Below are positions 1-8,199 of a stretch of 64,000 nt of DNA, one piece after another. The stretch's first letter is position 1. Every line of letters begins with the position of its first letter. The notes below the pieces were generated by a model. It did not search any database. It was not told the DNA's origin and was given only the letters and a program-made list of their open reading frames with translations. The stretch is taken from contig NZ_JADOTX010000001.1 of the NCBI RefSeq assembly GCF_015751765.1, positions 3,720,001-3,784,000 on the forward strand, given 5' to 3'. The translations under genes and the position numbers were made by a program. Source of the DNA: Micromonospora ureilytica. GTDB lineage: Bacteria > Actinomycetota > Actinomycetes > Mycobacteriales > Micromonosporaceae.

Positions 1-162
1 CTGGTCGCCGCCCGCGGTGACGAACCGGGCCGGGCCATGCTCGGCGCGGTCGCCCAGTCCCTGCTCTACCACTCCCCGGCCCCGGTGGTCGTCGTCCGCG
101 GCCTGGCCGAGGCGCCGCTGACCGGGCCTGGTGCCCGCCCGGCGCGGGACCAACGGCCCTGA
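1..162 (+). CDS. Universal stress protein, C-terminal fragment (cut by window start)
   Basis: Only the last 53 codons are present, read in frame 1 to a TGA at 160-162. The visible sequence ends with a typical Usp ATP-binding end: a small-residue stretch, then SLLYHSPAPVVVVR, which matches the HxxxPVxVVR end of UspA domains. The tail of about 20 residues after it is low-complexity. A DevR-like box (146-159) overlaps the last codons, so the 3' end of this gene doubles as regulatory DNA for the phosphoketolase gene. It belongs to the stress/dormancy block that follows. Confidence is good for the family and nil for the rest of the protein. Confidence 0.75.
   Translation: MVAARGDEPGRAMLGAVAQSLLYHSPAPVVVVRGLAEAPLTGPGARPARDQRP
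144..161 (+). promoter_or_regulatory. Candidate DevR/DosR-type box upstream of xfp
   Basis: GGGAC (146-150), four bases, GGCCC (155-159). It lies 68 bp before the phosphoketolase ATG and inside the 3' end of the upstream Usp gene. The same 5-4-5 pattern occurs ahead of both Acg-type genes and the devR-like gene. It resembles the DevR palindrome of other actinobacteria (GGGAC-N4-GTCCC type). Assignment is by pattern only. Confidence 0.6.
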
Positions 163-166
163 CCCC

Positions 167-205
167 GGGGCGTCCGCAGCGGCCAGGCTGAACACCGGAC
201 GCCCC
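167..205. repeat. 10-bp inverted repeat in the xfp leader
   Basis: GGGGCGTCCG (167-176) is perfectly mirrored by CGGACGCCCC (196-205) with a 19-base spacer. It sits between the Usp stop and the xfp ribosome binding site (GAGAGG, 218-223). It could be a terminator for the Usp transcript without a T-run, or a leader hairpin. Confidence 0.5.
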
Positions 206-227
206 ACTCCTACCCGCGAGAGGCAGC

Positions 228-2624
228 ATGATGGACACCGCTCTCGACGTGCACAGCGCCCTCACCGACGACGAGCTGCGCCGACTGGACGCCTACTGGC
301 GCGCCGCGAACTACCTCACCGTCGGGCAGATCTACCTGCTGGACAATCCGCTGCTGCGCGAGCCGCTGACCCCCGACGACATCAAGCCTCGACTGCTCGG
401 GCACTGGGGCACCAGCCCCGGCCTCAATCTGATCTACGCCCACCTCAACCGGATGATCGTGGCGCGCGACCTCAACGCCATGCTGGTCACCGGCCCCGGC
501 CACGGAGGCCCGGCCATCGTGGCCAACACCTGGCTGGAGGGCACCTGGTCGGAGCGCTACCACGACGTGGCGCGCGACGAGGCCGGGATGTCCCAGCTCT
601 TCCGCCAGTTCTCCTTCCCGGGCGGCATCCCCAGCCACGTGGCGGCGGACGTGCCGGGTTCGATCCACGAGGGCGGCGAGCTGGGGTACGCGTTGAGCCA
701 CGCCTACGGCGCCGCGTTCGACCACCCGGACCTGCTGGTGGCCTGCGTGATCGGCGACGGTGAGGCGGAGACCGGGCCGCTGGCCGGCAGCTGGCTCTCC
801 AACGTGTTCCTCAATCCGGCGCGCGACGGCGCGGTGCTGCCCATCCTGCACCTCAACGGCTACAAGATCGCCAACCCGACCGTGCTGGCCCGGATCCCCG
901 AGAGCGACCTGCTCGACCTCCTGCGCGGGTCGGGCTACCAGCCGTACGTGGTGGCCGGCGACGATCCCGCCCAGGTGCATCGGACCCTCGCGGCGACGCT
1001 GGACCGCGTGCTGGACGAGATCGCCGAGATCCAGCGGCGGGCCCGCTCCGGGGGCGTCGTCGAACGTCCCCGCTGGCCAATGATCATTCTGCGGACGCCG
1101 AAGGGCTGGACCGGCCCGCGTGAGGTCGACGGCACCGAGGTGGAGGGCACCTACCGCGCCCATCAGGTGCCGCTGTCGGGCGTCCGCGACAACCCGGCGC
1201 ACCTGGCCGAGTTGGAGCACTGGCTGCGCAGCTACCGGCCGGAGGAGCTGTTCGACGCGACCGGCGCGCCGGTCGACGAGCTCCTGACGTTGCCGCCGCG
1301 CGGTGACCGGCGGATGAGCGCCAACCCGGTCACCAACGGCGGCGTGGTGCTGCGCGACCTGACCCTGCCGGACTTCCGCGACTACGGCGTGGAGGTTCCC
1401 GAACCGGGTACGCCGATCGCCGGCGCGACAGGGGTGCTCGGCCCGTGGATCCGTGACGTCATCAGCGCCAACCCGCAGACGTTCCGGCTGTTCGGCCCGG
1501 ACGAGGTCGCGTCCAACCGGCTGGGCGCCGCGTTCGAGGTGACCGACCGGGTCTGGGTTGCCGCCACAGTGCCCGGCGACGACCACCTCTCCCCGGACGG
1601 GCGGGTCATGGAGGTGCTCTCCGAGCACCTGTGCCAGGGCTGGCTGGAGGGCTACCTGTTGACCGGCCGGCACGGTGTGTTCACCAGCTACGAGGCGTTC
1701 ATCCACATCGTCGACTCGATGCTCAACCAGCACGCCAAGTGGCTGAAGGTGACCCGGGCCATCCCCTGGCGGCAGCCGATCGCCTCGCTGAACTACCTGC
1801 TCTCCAGCCACGTCTGGCGGCAGGACCACAACGGCTTCTCCCACCAGGACCCGGGCTTCATCGACCACGTCGTCAACAAGAAGGCCGAGGTGGTGCGGGT
1901 CTATCTGCCACCGGACGCGAACACGCTGCTCGCCACGATGGACCACTGCCTGCGCAGCCGGCACTACATCAACGTGGTGGTGGCCGGTAAGCAGGCGGCG
2001 CCGAACTGGCTGACGATGACCGAGGCGATCCAGCACACCCGCCGTGGCCTGGGCATCTGGGAGTGGGCCAGCAACGACGGCGGCACCGAGCCGGACGTGG
2101 TGCTCGCCTGCTGCGGAGACGTGCCCACCCTGGAGACGTTGGCCGCCGTCGAACTGCTGCGCCAGAACCTCCCGGAGTTGAAGGTGCGCCTGGTCAACGT
2201 GGTCGACCTGATGCGACTCCAGCCGGACACCGAGCACCCCCACGGCCTCACCGACAACGAGTTCGACACCATCTTCACCGAGGACCGGCCGATCATCTTC
2301 GCGTACCACGGTTACCCGTGGCTGATCCACCGACTCACCTACCGCCGCAGCAACCACGACAACCTGCACGTGCGCGGTTACAAGGAGGAGGGCACCACCA
2401 CCACCCCGTTCGACATGGTGATGCTCAACGACCTGGACCGCTTCCACCTGGTCATCGACGTCATCGACCGGGTACCCGGCCTGGCCGCCCGCGCCGCGCA
2501 CCTGCGCCAACGGATGGTCGACGCCCGGCAGGCAGCCCGCGACTACACCCGCCAGTACGGCGAGGACGACCCCCAGGTCGCCGAATGGCGCTGGGTCCGC
2601 GACACCGACCCGACCGCCCCCTGA
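228..2624 (+). CDS. xfp: Phosphoketolase (xylulose-5-phosphate/fructose-6-phosphate)
   Basis: Thiamine-diphosphate enzyme expected to cleave xylulose 5-phosphate (and/or fructose 6-phosphate) with phosphate to acetyl phosphate plus glyceraldehyde 3-phosphate (or erythrose 4-phosphate). The 798 residues match the usual length of about 790. The N-terminal [11 protein letters not shown] and GPGHGGPA stretches (about 57-95) and [14 protein letters not shown] (about 176-189), which is the ThDP/metal motif, are diagnostic. The start is ATG 228, 4 bases after GAGAGG; a second ATG follows directly. The Usp gene starts 11 bp downstream, so the two are probably cotranscribed. The upstream DevR-like box suggests induction under low oxygen. 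Substrate preference cannot be read from the sequence. Confidence 0.95.
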
Positions 2625-2635
2625 AGGAGAACGAC

Positions 2636-3493
2636 GTGCGCGATGCGGAGATCCTGGTCGGCTACGACGGCTCCACCGACGCCTCGGTGGCCCTGAACTG
2701 GGCAGTGGAGGAGGCGCAGCGCAGCGGCCAGCCGGTGCGGCTGGCGTACGTCTTCGAATGGCTGACCGTGGCCAGCTGGGTCGGTCCGGGCGTGGCCCCC
2801 GGCGTGTGGCCCGACGACACCGCCCGCCGGCAGGTCGACGACCTGGTCCGCAAGGCCGCGGCGGACGCCGCCGCGGCCAACCCCGGGCTGCGGATCACCG
2901 GCGAGGTGTACGACGGGCCGCCCGCTCTGGTGTTGCAGGAACGCTCCGCCGAGGCCGGGATGCTGGTGCTCGGCAGCCGAGGCCACGGCGGATTCGGCGG
3001 CCTGCTGGCCGGGTCGACTGCGGTGTCGGTCGCCGCGCACGCCCACTGCCCGGTCGTGGTGGTGCGGGACGGGGTCGGCAGCACCGCGACCGACACGTCG
3101 AACCGCCCGGTGGTGGTCGGGGTGGACGGCTCGGAACCGTCGCTGGTGGCGCTCGGCTTCGCCGCCGAACGGGCGGCGCAGCGGCAGCTGCCGCTGCGCG
3201 TCCTGCACGCCTGGACACCGGGTCCCGGCGGGGCGGCCGGGGTGCCCGACGAGCGGGCCGCCGTGGAGCAGGCGCTGGAGCCGTGGCGGCGAACGTTTCC
3301 CGAGGTGGCGGTGACCGTCGACCTGGAGTCGACGAGCCCGTCGGCGATGCTGATCGAGGCGAGTCGGGACGCGCGGCTGGTCGTGGTCGGCAGCCGGGGC
3401 CGGGGCGGGCTGGCCGGCATGCTGCTCGGCTCGGTCAGCCAACAGCTCATCCAGCACGCCAACTGCCCGGTCGCCGTGGTCCGCGAACGCTGA
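2636..3493 (+). CDS. Tandem-domain universal stress protein
   Basis: 285 residues with two Usp domains, roughly 1-145 and 150-285. Each opens with a V-G-x-D-G-S strand (LVGYDGSTDAS, VVGVDGSEPS) and closes with the ATP-binding glycine pattern (GSRGHGGFGGLLAGS and GSRGRGGLAGMLLGS) followed by HxxCPVxVV. Two-domain Usp proteins of this type are common DevR-regulon members in mycobacteria. The start is GTG 2636, preceded by AAGGAGA at 2625-2631; the gene follows xfp by 11 bp. It probably binds ATP in the cytosol; its target is unknown. Confidence 0.92.
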   Translation: MRDAEILVGYDGSTDASVALNWAVEEAQRSGQPVRLAYVFEWLTVASWVGPGVAPGVWPDDTARRQVDDLVRKAAADAAAANPGLRITGEVYDGPPALVLQERSAEAGMLVLGSRGHGGFGGLLAGSTAVSVAAHAHCPVVVVRDGVGSTATDTSNRPVVVGVDGSEPSLVALGFAAERAAQRQLPLRVLHAWTPGPGGAAGVPDERAAVEQALEPWRRTFPEVAVTVDLESTSPSAMLIEASRDARLVVVGSRGRGGLAGMLLGSVSQQLIQHANCPVAVVRER

Positions 3494-3521
3494 CCACCGC
3501 AGGCACAACGACCCAACGGGG

Positions 3522-3539
3522 TCGGGACCTGTGGCCCTG
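3522..3539 (+). promoter_or_regulatory. Candidate DevR/DosR-type box upstream of first Acg-type gene
   Basis: TCGGGACCTGTGGCCCTG: GGGAC at 3524-3528 and GGCCC at 3533-3537, spacer CTGT. It lies 82 bp before the ATG at 3620. The flanking TC and TG are the same as in the box at 7117-7134. Confidence 0.65.
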
Positions 3540-3595
3540 CGGGCACAGCGCCGAAGGCCACAGGATGAGACGGCGAGCCGCTGTACGGCTCGCCG
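3528..3595. repeat. Two consecutive hairpins in the Usp/Acg intergenic region
   Basis: First dyad: CCTGTGGCC (3528-3536) against GGCCACAGG (3556-3564), perfect 9 bp, overlapping the DevR-like box. Second dyad: CGGCGAGCCG (3571-3580) against CGGCTCGCCG (3586-3595), perfect 10 bp with a 5-base loop, ending 10 bases before the ribosome binding site GGAAAGG (3605-3611). There is no T-run, so this could be a Usp terminator or a leader structure of the Acg-type mRNA. Confidence 0.55.
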
Positions 3596-3619
3596 AGCAG
3601 AGACGGAAAGGTCGTGACC

Positions 3620-6374
<2,755 letters not shown>

Positions 6375-6389
6375 CCCCGGCGACTCAGG

Positions 6390-7028
6390 TCAGGGCGTCT
6401 TGCCGAGCAGCCGAGTGGCCAGGACGGCGGCCTGCGTGCGGCGCTCCAGGCCCAGCTTTGCCAGCACGCTGGACACGTAGTTCTTCACAGTCTTCTCCGC
6501 CAGGAACATCCGCCCGGCGATCTCCCGGTTGGTCAGCCCCTCCGCGACGTACTCCAGGATCCGCCGCTCCTGCTCGGTGAGCGACCTCAGTTCGCGCGGC
6601 TGCTCGACGCCGTTGCGGATGCGCTCCAGCACCCGGGCGGTGATCGCCGGGTCGAGCAGCGACTGCCCGGCCGCGACGCGGCGCACCGCGTCGACCAGGT
6701 CGGTGCCACGGATCTGCTTGAGCACGTACCCGGCGGCGCCCGCCATGATCGCCGCGAACAGGGCCTCGTCGTCCTCGTACGAGGTGAGGATCAGTCCCTT
6801 GATGGACGAGTCGACGGCGCGCACGTCCCGGCACACGTCGATGCCGTTGCCGTCGGGTAGCCGCGCGTCGAGGATCGCCACGTCGGGCCGCAACGCCGGG
6901 ATGCGGCGAGCCGCCTCCTGCGCCGAGCCGGACTCGCCGACCACCTCGATGTCGCCGCTGCTCTGCAACAGGTCGGCCAGGCCACGGCGGACGACCTCAT
7001 GGTCGTCGAGGAGGAACACACGGATCAT
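6390..7028 (-). CDS. devR: DevR/DosR-like NarL-family response regulator
   Basis: 212 residues. Receiver domain 1-120 with phospho-acceptor Asp54 (ILDARLPDGNG), Thr82 (LTSY) and Lys104, then a LuxR-type helix-turn-helix at about 148-210. The recognition helix AEKTVKNYVSSVLAKLG contains Lys179, Lys182 and Asn183, the same residues and numbers as the DNA contacts of M. tuberculosis DosR; AGRMFLAEKTVKNYVS is nearly identical to DosR. It should activate stress genes carrying the GGGAC-N4-GGCCC box. One such box lies 36 bp upstream of its own ATG, suggesting autoregulation. Unlike in mycobacteria it is convergent with its kinase rather than in one operon. Confidence 0.95.
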   Translation of the reverse strand: MIRVFLLDDHEVVRRGLADLLQSSGDIEVVGESGSAQEAARRIPALRPDVAILDARLPDGNGIDVCRDVRAVDSSIKGLILTSYEDDEALFAAIMAGAAGYVLKQIRGTDLVDAVRRVAAGQSLLDPAITARVLERIRNGVEQPRELRSLTEQERRILEYVAEGLTNREIAGRMFLAEKTVKNYVSSVLAKLGLERRTQAAVLATRLLGKTP

Positions 7029-7062
7029 CCTTCGTTTCTACCCGCTGCCCACGGCCCGCCGC

Positions 7063-7080
7063 ACGGGCCGAAGGTCCCGA
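7063..7080 (-). promoter_or_regulatory. Candidate DevR box, devR side of divergent promoter
   Basis: Read on the minus strand it is GGGAC-CTTC-GGCCC (plus-strand 7078 to 7065), 36 bp upstream of the devR ATG. Together with the box at 7117-7134 it makes a two-box divergent control region between devR and the second Acg-type gene. Confidence 0.65.
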
Positions 7081-7116
7081 CCGGCACGCGGCGAGCGGGC
7101 GTTCGGACCCGACCGG

Positions 7117-7134
7117 TCGGGACGTCCGGCCCTG
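7117..7134 (+). promoter_or_regulatory. Candidate DevR box, Acg-type gene side of divergent promoter
   Basis: GGGAC (7119-7123), GTCC, GGCCC (7128-7132), 92 bp upstream of the second Acg-type ATG. It overlaps a 14-bp palindrome CCCGACCGGTCGGG (7108-7121). Confidence 0.65.
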
Positions 7135-7224
7135 CGCGACGGGCCATCGAACGATGGACCGTGGGGGTGCGCCGGGCACCGCGGCACCATCCGGCGACCG
7201 GCCCAGCGGGAGAGGAGCACCGTC

Positions 7225-8199
7225 ATGGACATCGGCTACACCGCAGCCCAGCTGCGGGCCGCCGCCGTGGACGCGGTCCGGGCACCGTCGTTGCACAACA
7301 CCCAGCCATGGCGGCTACGGCTGCGCGCCGGGGGCATCGAGGTGCTGGCCGACCCCGGCCGTCGGCTGCCGGCGACCGATCCGAGCGGGTGGGGTGTCCG
7401 GATCGCCTGCGGGGCGGCGCTTTTCAACCTGCGGATCGCCCTGGCCGTCACCGGTCCCCCGCCCCGGGTGCGACTACGCCCCGACCCGGCCGAGCCGGAC
7501 CTGCTGGCCCGGCTGGTGCCGGACACCCCGCGCCGGCCCACCCCCACCGAACAGAGCCTGTACGCGGCCATCCCCCGCCGGTTCAGCAACCGCCTGCCGT
7601 TCTGGCCGGACCCGGTGCCGGCCGACGCCCGGTGGCTCCTCGGCGAGGCGGCCCGTATCGAGCAGTGCTGGTTGGAGCTGCTGATCGGGGTGAGCGCGGT
7701 CTCCGCGTTCGGCGAGATCGCCCGCAGCGCGCACCGGGTGCTGGAGCGGGACCCCGCGTACCGGGCCGAACGGGATGGCTGGCTGCGCCGGGAGTTCACC
7801 CCGGACGGCGTACCCGCGTCGGCCGGGGGTCCGCAGGGCGAGCCGCAGGATGTCCTCCCGACCCGCGGCTACGGTGGGCGCGACCGTGCCCCCGGGCGGG
7901 ACTTCGAACCGGAACCCCTGGTGGGGGTGTTGGGCTCGGTGGGCAACACCGCCGTGGACCAGGTGATCGCCGGGCAGGCCCTGCAACGGCTGCTGCTCAC
8001 CGCAACGGATGCCGGGCTCAGCGTGTCGATGCTCTCCCAGCCGATCGAGGTGGCCCCGGCGCGGGAGCAACTGCGGCTGTCGCTGGGGCGATTCGGCACA
8101 CCGCAGATGGTGTTGCGGATCGGGTACGGCCAACCGGGCCGACCGACCCCCCGACGCAGCGTCGACGAGGTGCTGGACCTGCCGGTGGTGCCCGCCTGA
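7225..8199 (+). CDS. Second Acg-family FMN-binding nitroreductase-like protein
   Basis: 324 residues, a diverged paralogue of the protein encoded at 3620-4603. It keeps APSLHNTQPWRLRL (about 22-35), RRFSNRLPF in place of RHTDRRPV, and the C-terminal half-domain ending in FGTPQMVLRIGYG, where the paralogue has IGFPYLVLRLGI. A Gly-Pro-rich insertion of about 30 residues lies near the middle (about 190-225). ATG 7225 has GGGAGAGGAG (7208-7217) 7 bases upstream. It is divergent from devR with two DevR-like boxes between them, which supports hypoxic induction. Cofactor and substrate are unproven. Confidence 0.88.
   Translation: MDIGYTAAQLRAAAVDAVRAPSLHNTQPWRLRLRAGGIEVLADPGRRLPATDPSGWGVRIACGAALFNLRIALAVTGPPPRVRLRPDPAEPDLLARLVPDTPRRPTPTEQSLYAAIPRRFSNRLPFWPDPVPADARWLLGEAARIEQCWLELLIGVSAVSAFGEIARSAHRVLERDPAYRAERDGWLRREFTPDGVPASAGGPQGEPQDVLPTRGYGGRDRAPGRDFEPEPLVGVLGSVGNTAVDQVIAGQALQRLLLTATDAGLSVSMLSQPIEVAPAREQLRLSLGRFGTPQMVLRIGYGQPGRPTPRRSVDEVLDLPVVPA

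What the first reader, a model, noticed from the sequence alone, without database searches (positions are those of the whole stretch)
144..7134. Four copies of GGGAC-N4-GGCCC mark a compact DevR regulon
Identical spaced motifs are at 146-159 (before xfp), 3524-3537 (before the first Acg-type gene), 7065-7078 (minus, before devR) and 7119-7132 (before the second Acg-type gene). All lie 36-92 bp upstream of start codons of a DevR-like regulator or of families that are DevR targets in mycobacteria. The DevR-like protein keeps the DosR DNA-contact residues Lys179, Lys182 and Asn183, so the motif is a plausible site; it differs from the mycobacterial palindrome by ending in GGCCC instead of GTCCC.
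Basis: partly seen in the sequence, partly recalled or inferred. Interest (0 to 1): 0.75.

Follow-up and report, generated by a model that had tools for sequence, protein, structure and literature searches.

The report
DevR-type dormancy switch in Micromonospora
A soil actinomycete carries a small set of DNA switches of the kind that the tuberculosis dormancy regulator DevR binds, in front of its own copy of that regulator, stress genes and, unexpectedly, genes that make and use acetyl-phosphate.

Summary
The four GGGAC-N4-GGCCC sites are real and at the stated places. Alone the 14-mer is weak evidence: 27 copies in the 7.1-Mb genome, 16 of the other 23 inside genes. But four in 7 kb is unlikely by chance (17 of 200,000 simulations), a matrix from relatives ranks these four top in the surrounding 121 kb, and each has a -10-like hexamer 23-24 nt downstream (4 of 4, against 2 of 23 other copies). 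The devR site sits 48-52 bp before the start in 19 of 30 family loci. The regulator is the genome's only close DevR relative (59% identity); the neighbouring kinase has the DevS/DosT haem histidine. So this is a DevR/OsdR-type autoregulated cluster. The GGCCC end is no deviation: it fits a mycobacterial consensus and the OsdR list. New here: degenerate partner boxes 22-23 bp upstream, a predicted leaderless devR, and a box at -49 before pta-ackA, 2.9 Mb away, conserved in 8 of 21 genomes. With xfp this puts acetyl-phosphate metabolism under predicted DevR control. No binding was tested.

The parts
1..162 (+). 3' end of a tandem-Usp universal stress protein gene (usp1); its last codons overlap the xfp box
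   Evidence: gene-1517 in L013; Pfam Usp
124..137 (+). possible degenerate secondary DevR box of xfp, 22 bp upstream of the primary box
   Evidence: 1 mismatch of 8 fixed positions; low matrix score -7.9
146..159 (+). primary DevR box of xfp-usp2, GGGACCAACGGCCC
   Evidence: score 18.1; identical 14-mer before xfp in L063, L064, L066 and L193, L194
184..189 (+). predicted -10 element CAGGCT, 24 nt after the box
   Evidence: NANNNT at this spacing in 14 of 18 xfp contexts
228..2624 (+). xfp, phosphoketolase
   Evidence: Pfam XFP_N, XFP, XFP_C; NCBIfam phosphoketolase
2636..3493 (+). usp2, tandem universal stress protein, 11 bp after xfp (probable operon)
   Evidence: Pfam Usp, two stretches; start and gap
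3501..3514 (+). possible degenerate secondary box of acg1, 23 bp upstream of the primary box
   Evidence: 2 mismatches of 8; score 1.0
3524..3537 (+). primary DevR box of acg1-devS, GGGACCTGTGGCCC
   Evidence: score 16.7; L061 counterpart GGGACCTGCGGCCC
3561..3566 (+). predicted -10 element CAGGAT, 23 nt after the box
3614..4603 (+). acg1, Acg-family FMN oxidoreductase
   Evidence: NF047509 284.5 bits, cut-off 199; PDB 2ymv Acg nitroreductase
4644..6374 (+). devS-like kinase, GAF-GAF-HisKA_3-HATPase, 40 bp after acg1 (probable operon); His150 = DevS His149, Tyr172 = Tyr171
6390..7028 (-). devR, NarL-type response regulator; Asp54, Lys179, Lys182, Asn183 present
7035..7040 (-). predicted leaderless -10 element TAGAAA of devR (-12 to -7 from the start codon)
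7065..7078 (-). primary DevR box of devR, GGGACCTTCGGCCC (-50 to -37)
   Evidence: score 20.6
7097..7110 (+). possible degenerate secondary box of acg2, 22 bp upstream of its primary box
   Evidence: 1 mismatch of 8; score 3.7; counterpart in 9 of 9 relatives' acg2 contexts (own genome not among them)
7119..7132 (+). primary DevR box of acg2, GGGACGTCCGGCCC
   Evidence: score 15.5
7157..7162 (+). predicted -10 element GACCGT of acg2, 24 nt after the box
   Evidence: NANNNT at this spacing in 9 of 9 relatives' acg2 contexts
7225..8199 (+). acg2, Acg-family FMN oxidoreductase
   Evidence: NF047509 304.4 bits, cut-off 199

Best explanation
This is the core of a DevR/OsdR-type dormancy regulon in a Micromonospora. 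A haem GAF kinase (DevS-like) probably senses low oxygen or redox state and phosphorylates DevR on Asp54. DevR then binds the primary box centred about 43 bp before each predicted transcription start, overlapping the -35 region, helped at acg2, xfp and acg1 by a weaker box 22-23 bp further upstream. It activates xfp-usp2, acg1-devS, devR itself (predicted leaderless) and acg2. The same geometry before pta-ackA elsewhere in the genome suggests that acetyl-phosphate production (Xfp) and use (Pta, AckA) are induced together as a low-oxygen energy route. Shown: sites, conservation, geometry, protein families and key residues. Inferred: binding, activation, oxygen as the signal, operons, transcription starts.
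For: Matrix from 64 relatives' boxes, own genome left out, ranks the four sites top of the 121 kb around them. devR box at -48 to -52 in 19 of 30 family loci, own included, and at -49 or -50 in 14 of 21 named loci L061-L081 (the two sets overlap in part), with the T of GTANNA at position 23-26 after the box in 28 of 31 contexts. NANNNT at 23/24 nt: acg2 9 of 9, xfp 14 of 18, acg1 2 of 3; other offset pairs at most 1, 3 and 1. Window: NANNNW 4 of 4 against 2 of 23 other exact copies, NANNNT 3 of 4 against 0 of 23. Secondary box at -22/-23: acg2 9 of 9, xfp 12 of 18, acg1 2 of 3. Exact-core xfp box 12 of 28 in genomes with the devR orthologue, 0 of 7 without (one-sided P = 0.036). pta box at -48 to -50 in 8 of 21 against 0 of 4. 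DevR 59% identical to the M. tuberculosis protein; the next-best paralogue has 130 against 249 bits. In M. tuberculosis the start-proximal box overlaps -35 and boxes are closely packed (PMC3029386, passages).
Against: No binding or expression data. 11 of 30 family devR loci lack an exact box at -48 to -52, as do 16 of 28 xfp genes (within 200 bp) and 13 of 21 pta genes in genomes with the orthologue. With one mismatch allowed the xfp contrast vanishes (19 of 28 against 4 of 7). Three of the four pta genes in genomes without the orthologue are distant (40-44%), so that control is weak. Outside the 121 kb at least eight other sites among the loci I scored reach 15.5 or more (L151 20.2, L008 17.7, L144, L152, L162 and L163 17.4, L181 16.9, L018 15.5), so the score alone does not define a regulon. 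Of 120 sites examined, 16 have a -10-like hexamer on one side or the other, not clearly more than chance would give (the chance estimate is mine, by hand). The devR secondary box is not clearly above control (11 of 37, control maximum 10), and the window's secondary boxes score low. The -10 offset control is uninformative for devR because its start codon is fixed. Context sets were chosen by an exact core pattern. The own pta box scores only 5.7. The genomes are related, so counts are not independent.
Confidence: 0.85

Rival explanations
1. Chance matches in a G+C-rich genome: the 14-mer is built of GGG, GGCC and CCC runs and four happen to fall near devR.
For: Window shuffles reach four in 4 of 100; 16 of 23 other genomic copies are inside genes; eight other scored sites reach the matrix range of the four.
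Against: Clustering 17 of 200,000; conserved position across genera; conserved box before xfp and acg2, and in L061 acg1; fixed -10 spacing in 4 of 4 against 2 of 23 other copies.
Confidence: 0.03
2. The boxes are real regulator sites, but bound mainly by another NarL-type response regulator or shared among several.
For: The genome has 75 matches to the DevR query, many of them full-length paralogues at about 29-43% identity; no binding data.
Against: The box lies before devR itself at fixed distance; only one protein is a close DevR relative; DNA-contact residues match; exact-core xfp and pta boxes were not seen in the few genomes without the orthologue (0 of 7 and 0 of 4).
Confidence: 0.08
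3. The repeats are RNA hairpins (terminators or attenuators), not protein sites.
For: The half-sites are inverted repeats; two other high-scoring copies in the genome can form hairpins (L151, L181; z -1.76 and -0.43).
Against: None of the four window sites folds clearly better than shuffles (z 0.21, -0.63, -1.77, 0.69); they lie upstream of predicted -10 elements, so would not be transcribed from these promoters.
Confidence: 0.03

Closest known systems
Streptomyces coelicolor OsdKR (SCO0203-SCO0204) and its predicted regulon (PMC5069765)
   Same: DevR-type regulator next to Usp and nitroreductase-family genes with several boxes; the 14-mer GGGACCTTCGGCCC is in three rows of its table (SCO5979, SCO0167c, SCO0216).
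   Different: OsdR Table 1 has no phosphoketolase or acetate kinase; there osdR-osdK is an operon, here devR and devS are convergent and devS follows acg1.
Mycobacterium tuberculosis DevR/DosR with DevS and DosT
   Same: 59% identical regulator with the same contact residues and Asp54; haem-type GAF kinase; start-proximal box near -35 with a close second box.
   Different: Acg genes, Usp genes and the regulator sit in one 8-kb cluster; xfp, and pta-ackA at a distance, carry predicted boxes; devR has its own predicted leaderless promoter. That neither of the two metabolic units is a DosR target in M. tuberculosis is recalled, not tested; my searches showed no report of it.

Membership tests
DevR/DosR-OsdR response regulator | NarL-type two-domain regulator, closest to DevR | tested here: met
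   Response_reg + GerE; best PDB match 3c3w DevR, 250 bits against 152 for VraR; sole close relative in the genome
DevR/DosR-OsdR response regulator | Asp54 and DNA-contact residues Lys179, Lys182, Asn183 | tested here: met
   residues named in PMC4082495 and Asp54 in PMC3029386
DevR/DosR-OsdR response regulator | binds the DevR box when phosphorylated | not testable with these tools
   no binding data; conservation and geometry only
DevS/DosT-type haem sensor kinase | GAF-GAF-HisKA_3-HATPase with proximal haem histidine | tested here: met
   His149 role from PMC4082495. The DevS construct limits used for the numbering are partly recalled
DevS/DosT-type haem sensor kinase | binds haem and responds to oxygen or NO | not testable with these tools
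   sequence only
DevR box | fits the core of the mycobacterial (GGGACTTNNGNCCCT) or OsdR (AGGGCCGATCGGCCCT) consensus | tested here: met
   GGGAC-N4-GNCCC in all four; the TT after GGGAC is not kept (CA, CT, CT, GT)
DevR-regulated promoter | start-proximal box overlapping -35 | tested here: inconclusive
   box centre about -43 from predicted starts; starts not mapped
Acg family (Rv3131-like) | NF047509 above curated cut-off | tested here: met
   284.5 and 304.4 bits, cut-off 199

The most novel reading that the evidence does not exclude
In Micromonosporaceae the DevR switch is wired into acetyl-phosphate metabolism as a loop: DevR induces phosphoketolase (which makes acetyl-phosphate) and pta-ackA (which interconvert it), while acetyl-phosphate, a phosphodonor for OsdR in vitro (PMC5069765), can itself feed DevR phosphorylation. 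Low oxygen and carbon overflow would then be read by one regulator, with self-reinforcement until AckA drains the pool for ATP.
Probability: 0.2. Interest if true: 0.65.

Novelty: new member of a known kind. Interest (0 to 1): 0.45.

Why it matters
It carries the DevR dormancy switch, studied in mycobacteria and Streptomyces coelicolor, into an antibiotic-producing family, with a clear predicted promoter grammar that can be tested in a harmless host. The predicted inclusion of xfp and pta-ackA would tie a low-oxygen regulator to a fermentation route and to a possible chemical phosphodonor of the regulator. My paper searches (listings only, except for the papers cited) showed no report of this, in an open-licence library alone.

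Tried and rejected
Bare-motif genome scan: GGGAC-N4-GGCCC 27 copies, GGGAC-N4-GWCCC 27 places, GGGMCYWNNGDCCC 24; most of those outside the cluster lie in genes or have no stress or redox gene next to them by my gene calls. L151 (GGGACCTTCGACCC, score 20.2) set aside as a target: it can form a hairpin after a small CsbD-like gene, although that fold is only moderately better than shuffles (z -1.76). L008, before bkd/Lrp genes (score 17.7), and L181, before a PhoH-like gene (16.9), were not followed (gene names recalled from their sequences). Three other Usp loci in the genome (near 2.23, 2.98 and 4.11 Mb) have no good box near the gene. The wider GGGHC-N4-GDCCC list was printed only to 2.99 Mb, so sites of that kind in the rest of the genome were seen only if they fit the narrower patterns; 120 distinct sites were examined. 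The upstream test is not valid for most of L082-L140 (N-terminal extensions shift the start), so those 59 loci were not counted; as run, 10 of them showed an exact-core box within 160 bp. In one search I gave usp2 one base out of frame and got no family; with the right start (2636) gives Usp, and the 10-bp gap printed should read 11. For pta the start was uncertain in L239 and L243. Start codons for some xfp loci are guesses (one not a standard start). No structure prediction was run.
Full report
Observation. The four exact copies are where stated. In window shuffles four or more appear in 4 of 100, so the count by itself is weak. The window lies in a 7,096,270-base, one-contig genome, where the 14-mer occurs 27 times against 119 for the reversed control. 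Of the 23 copies outside the cluster my gene caller puts 16 inside genes and 7 between genes. Four of 27 within 6,987 bases, the observed span, arose in 17 of 200,000 simulations. The closest named relative found is Micromonospora arida (DevR 99%; Acg, Xfp and kinase 94-96%).

Genes. The cluster runs usp1 (end only in the window), xfp, usp2, acg1, devS, devR (minus), acg2. Both Acg proteins exceed the NF047509 cut-off. DevR aligns without gaps to M. tuberculosis DevR over 208 residues, keeps Asp54, Lys179, Lys182, Asn183, Thr198 and Thr205, and is 59% identical at 248.8 bits; the next of 75 matches in this genome has 130 bits. The kinase's first GAF domain matches DosT and DevS best. Its HPPM histidine is residue 150, which aligns with the position of DevS His149, the proximal haem ligand (PMC4082495, passages); the exact limits of the DevS construct are recalled.

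Conservation. Among 30 family loci, own included, an exact-core devR box (GGGNC-N4-GNCCC) lies at -48 to -52 in 19. The sequence there varies: GGCCC, GACCC and GTCCC ends, and GGGCC starts, replace each other. In the named loci L061-L081, which overlap that set in part (L040 and L069, for example, are the same place), it lies at -49 or -50 in 14 of 21. A second block, GGTAGAAA at -14 to -7, is as conserved; G at -13 or -14 before a -10 element is the common promoter type in M. marinum (PMC8022548, passages). With no room for a leader between this element and the start codon, devR is predicted to be leaderless. Boxes before xfp, acg1 and acg2 recur in Micromonospora relatives, but not in all: no acg1 box was seen in L063, L064, L067 and L076, no xfp box in L067, L078 and L079, no acg2 box in L069, L071 and L074.

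Geometry. From loci with an exact-core box I collected 67 contexts (37 devR, 18 xfp, 9 acg2, 3 acg1). NANNNT starts 23 or 24 nt after the box in 9 of 9 acg2, 14 of 18 xfp and 2 of 3 acg1 contexts; other offset pairs reach at most 1, 3 and 1. For devR the element is NANNNW in 29 of 37, but there the offset control is uninformative (maximum 25) because the start codon is fixed. In the window all four boxes have it (CAGGCT, CAGGAT, GACCGT, TAGAAA; NANNNW), against 2 of 23 other exact copies in the genome; for NANNNT it is 3 of 4 against 0 of 23. A degenerate second box, at most 2 mismatches of 8, stands 22-23 bp upstream in 9 of 9 acg2, 12 of 18 xfp and 2 of 3 acg1 contexts, with control maxima 3, 6 and 1; for devR 11 of 37 with control maximum 10, so not shown. 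The nine acg2 contexts all come from Micromonospora or near relatives and are not independent. Close packing and a start-proximal box on -35 are described for M. tuberculosis DevR (PMC3029386, passages).

Regulon. A matrix from 64 boxes, the own genome left out but a very close relative (L061) included, scores the window's sites 20.6, 18.1, 16.7 and 15.5, the top four in 121 kb; the next distinct site has 12.8. Elsewhere in the genome eight of the candidate sites I had fetched score 15.5 or more, so the score alone does not define targets. xfp lies within 15 kb of a devR copy in 12 of 30 genomes with an xfp match (positions; one of the 30 matches is a 33-residue fragment). An exact-core box stands within 200 bp of xfp in 12 of 28 genomes with the devR orthologue and 0 of 7 without (2 partial loci dropped on each side; one-sided P 0.036); with one mismatch allowed it is 19 of 28 and 4 of 7, no contrast. 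Checking acetate kinase led to pta-ackA: GGGCCGGAGGGCCC, 23 nt, TAGGGT, then GTG, the same layout as devR. Upstream of pta an exact-core box lies at -48 to -50 in 8 of 21 genomes with the orthologue (own included), near matches at -50 or -51 in 3 more, and in 0 of 4 without it, three of those four being distant homologues. In two genomes the pta box is letter for letter that of the window's devR or xfp (L246, L237). This lead was found after the fact, its own matrix score is low (5.7), and 16 of 120 sites examined have a -10-like hexamer on one side or the other; the conserved position is the independent support.

Comparison. So the switch is a new member of a known kind. xfp and pta-ackA are not in that table, and none of my paper searches showed them as DevR targets (listings, with passages of PMC9784227). 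OsdR was phosphorylated with acetyl-phosphate in vitro (PMC5069765, section 6 read), which suggests the loop in the novel case; it is a hypothesis.

Noticed in passing
L180 around 1501 (genome 6662318-6662331); L232: Conserved DevR-type box at -49 before a leaderless-looking pta, with ackA downstream, far from the cluster.
   Followed up: yes
L061 13696-16017; L066 7184-8926: Relatives carry a P-type ATPase gene (in L061 with a hemerythrin domain) between acg1 and the Usp-xfp genes, divergent from acg1; it is absent from the window's cluster.
   Followed up: partly
L211 and L243 (genome G015, contig C10): xfp and pta are adjacent with a 40-base gap, as if one operon.
   Followed up: no
whole genome G000: The box-like palindromic patterns are rarer than their reversed controls (27 against 119; 398 against 1004 strand-wise counts), which hints at avoidance or composition bias.
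   Followed up: no
L151 1485-1530: A 14-mer identical to a devR box of relatives sits in a possible hairpin after a small CsbD-like gene; a trap for motif scans.
   Followed up: partly
L174 around 1501: GGGCCGGAGGGCCC with GAGGGT 24 nt downstream, 58 bp before an aminotransferase-like gene (name recalled from its sequence); the same box letters as pta, conservation not tested.
   Followed up: no
genomes G002, G021, G022, G024, G042, G052: Two close devR copies (79-91% identity to the window's) in single genomes, suggesting duplications of the switch.
   Followed up: no
L144, L152, L162, L163: GGGACGATCGACCC occurs four times in the genome, three times inside called genes.
   Followed up: no
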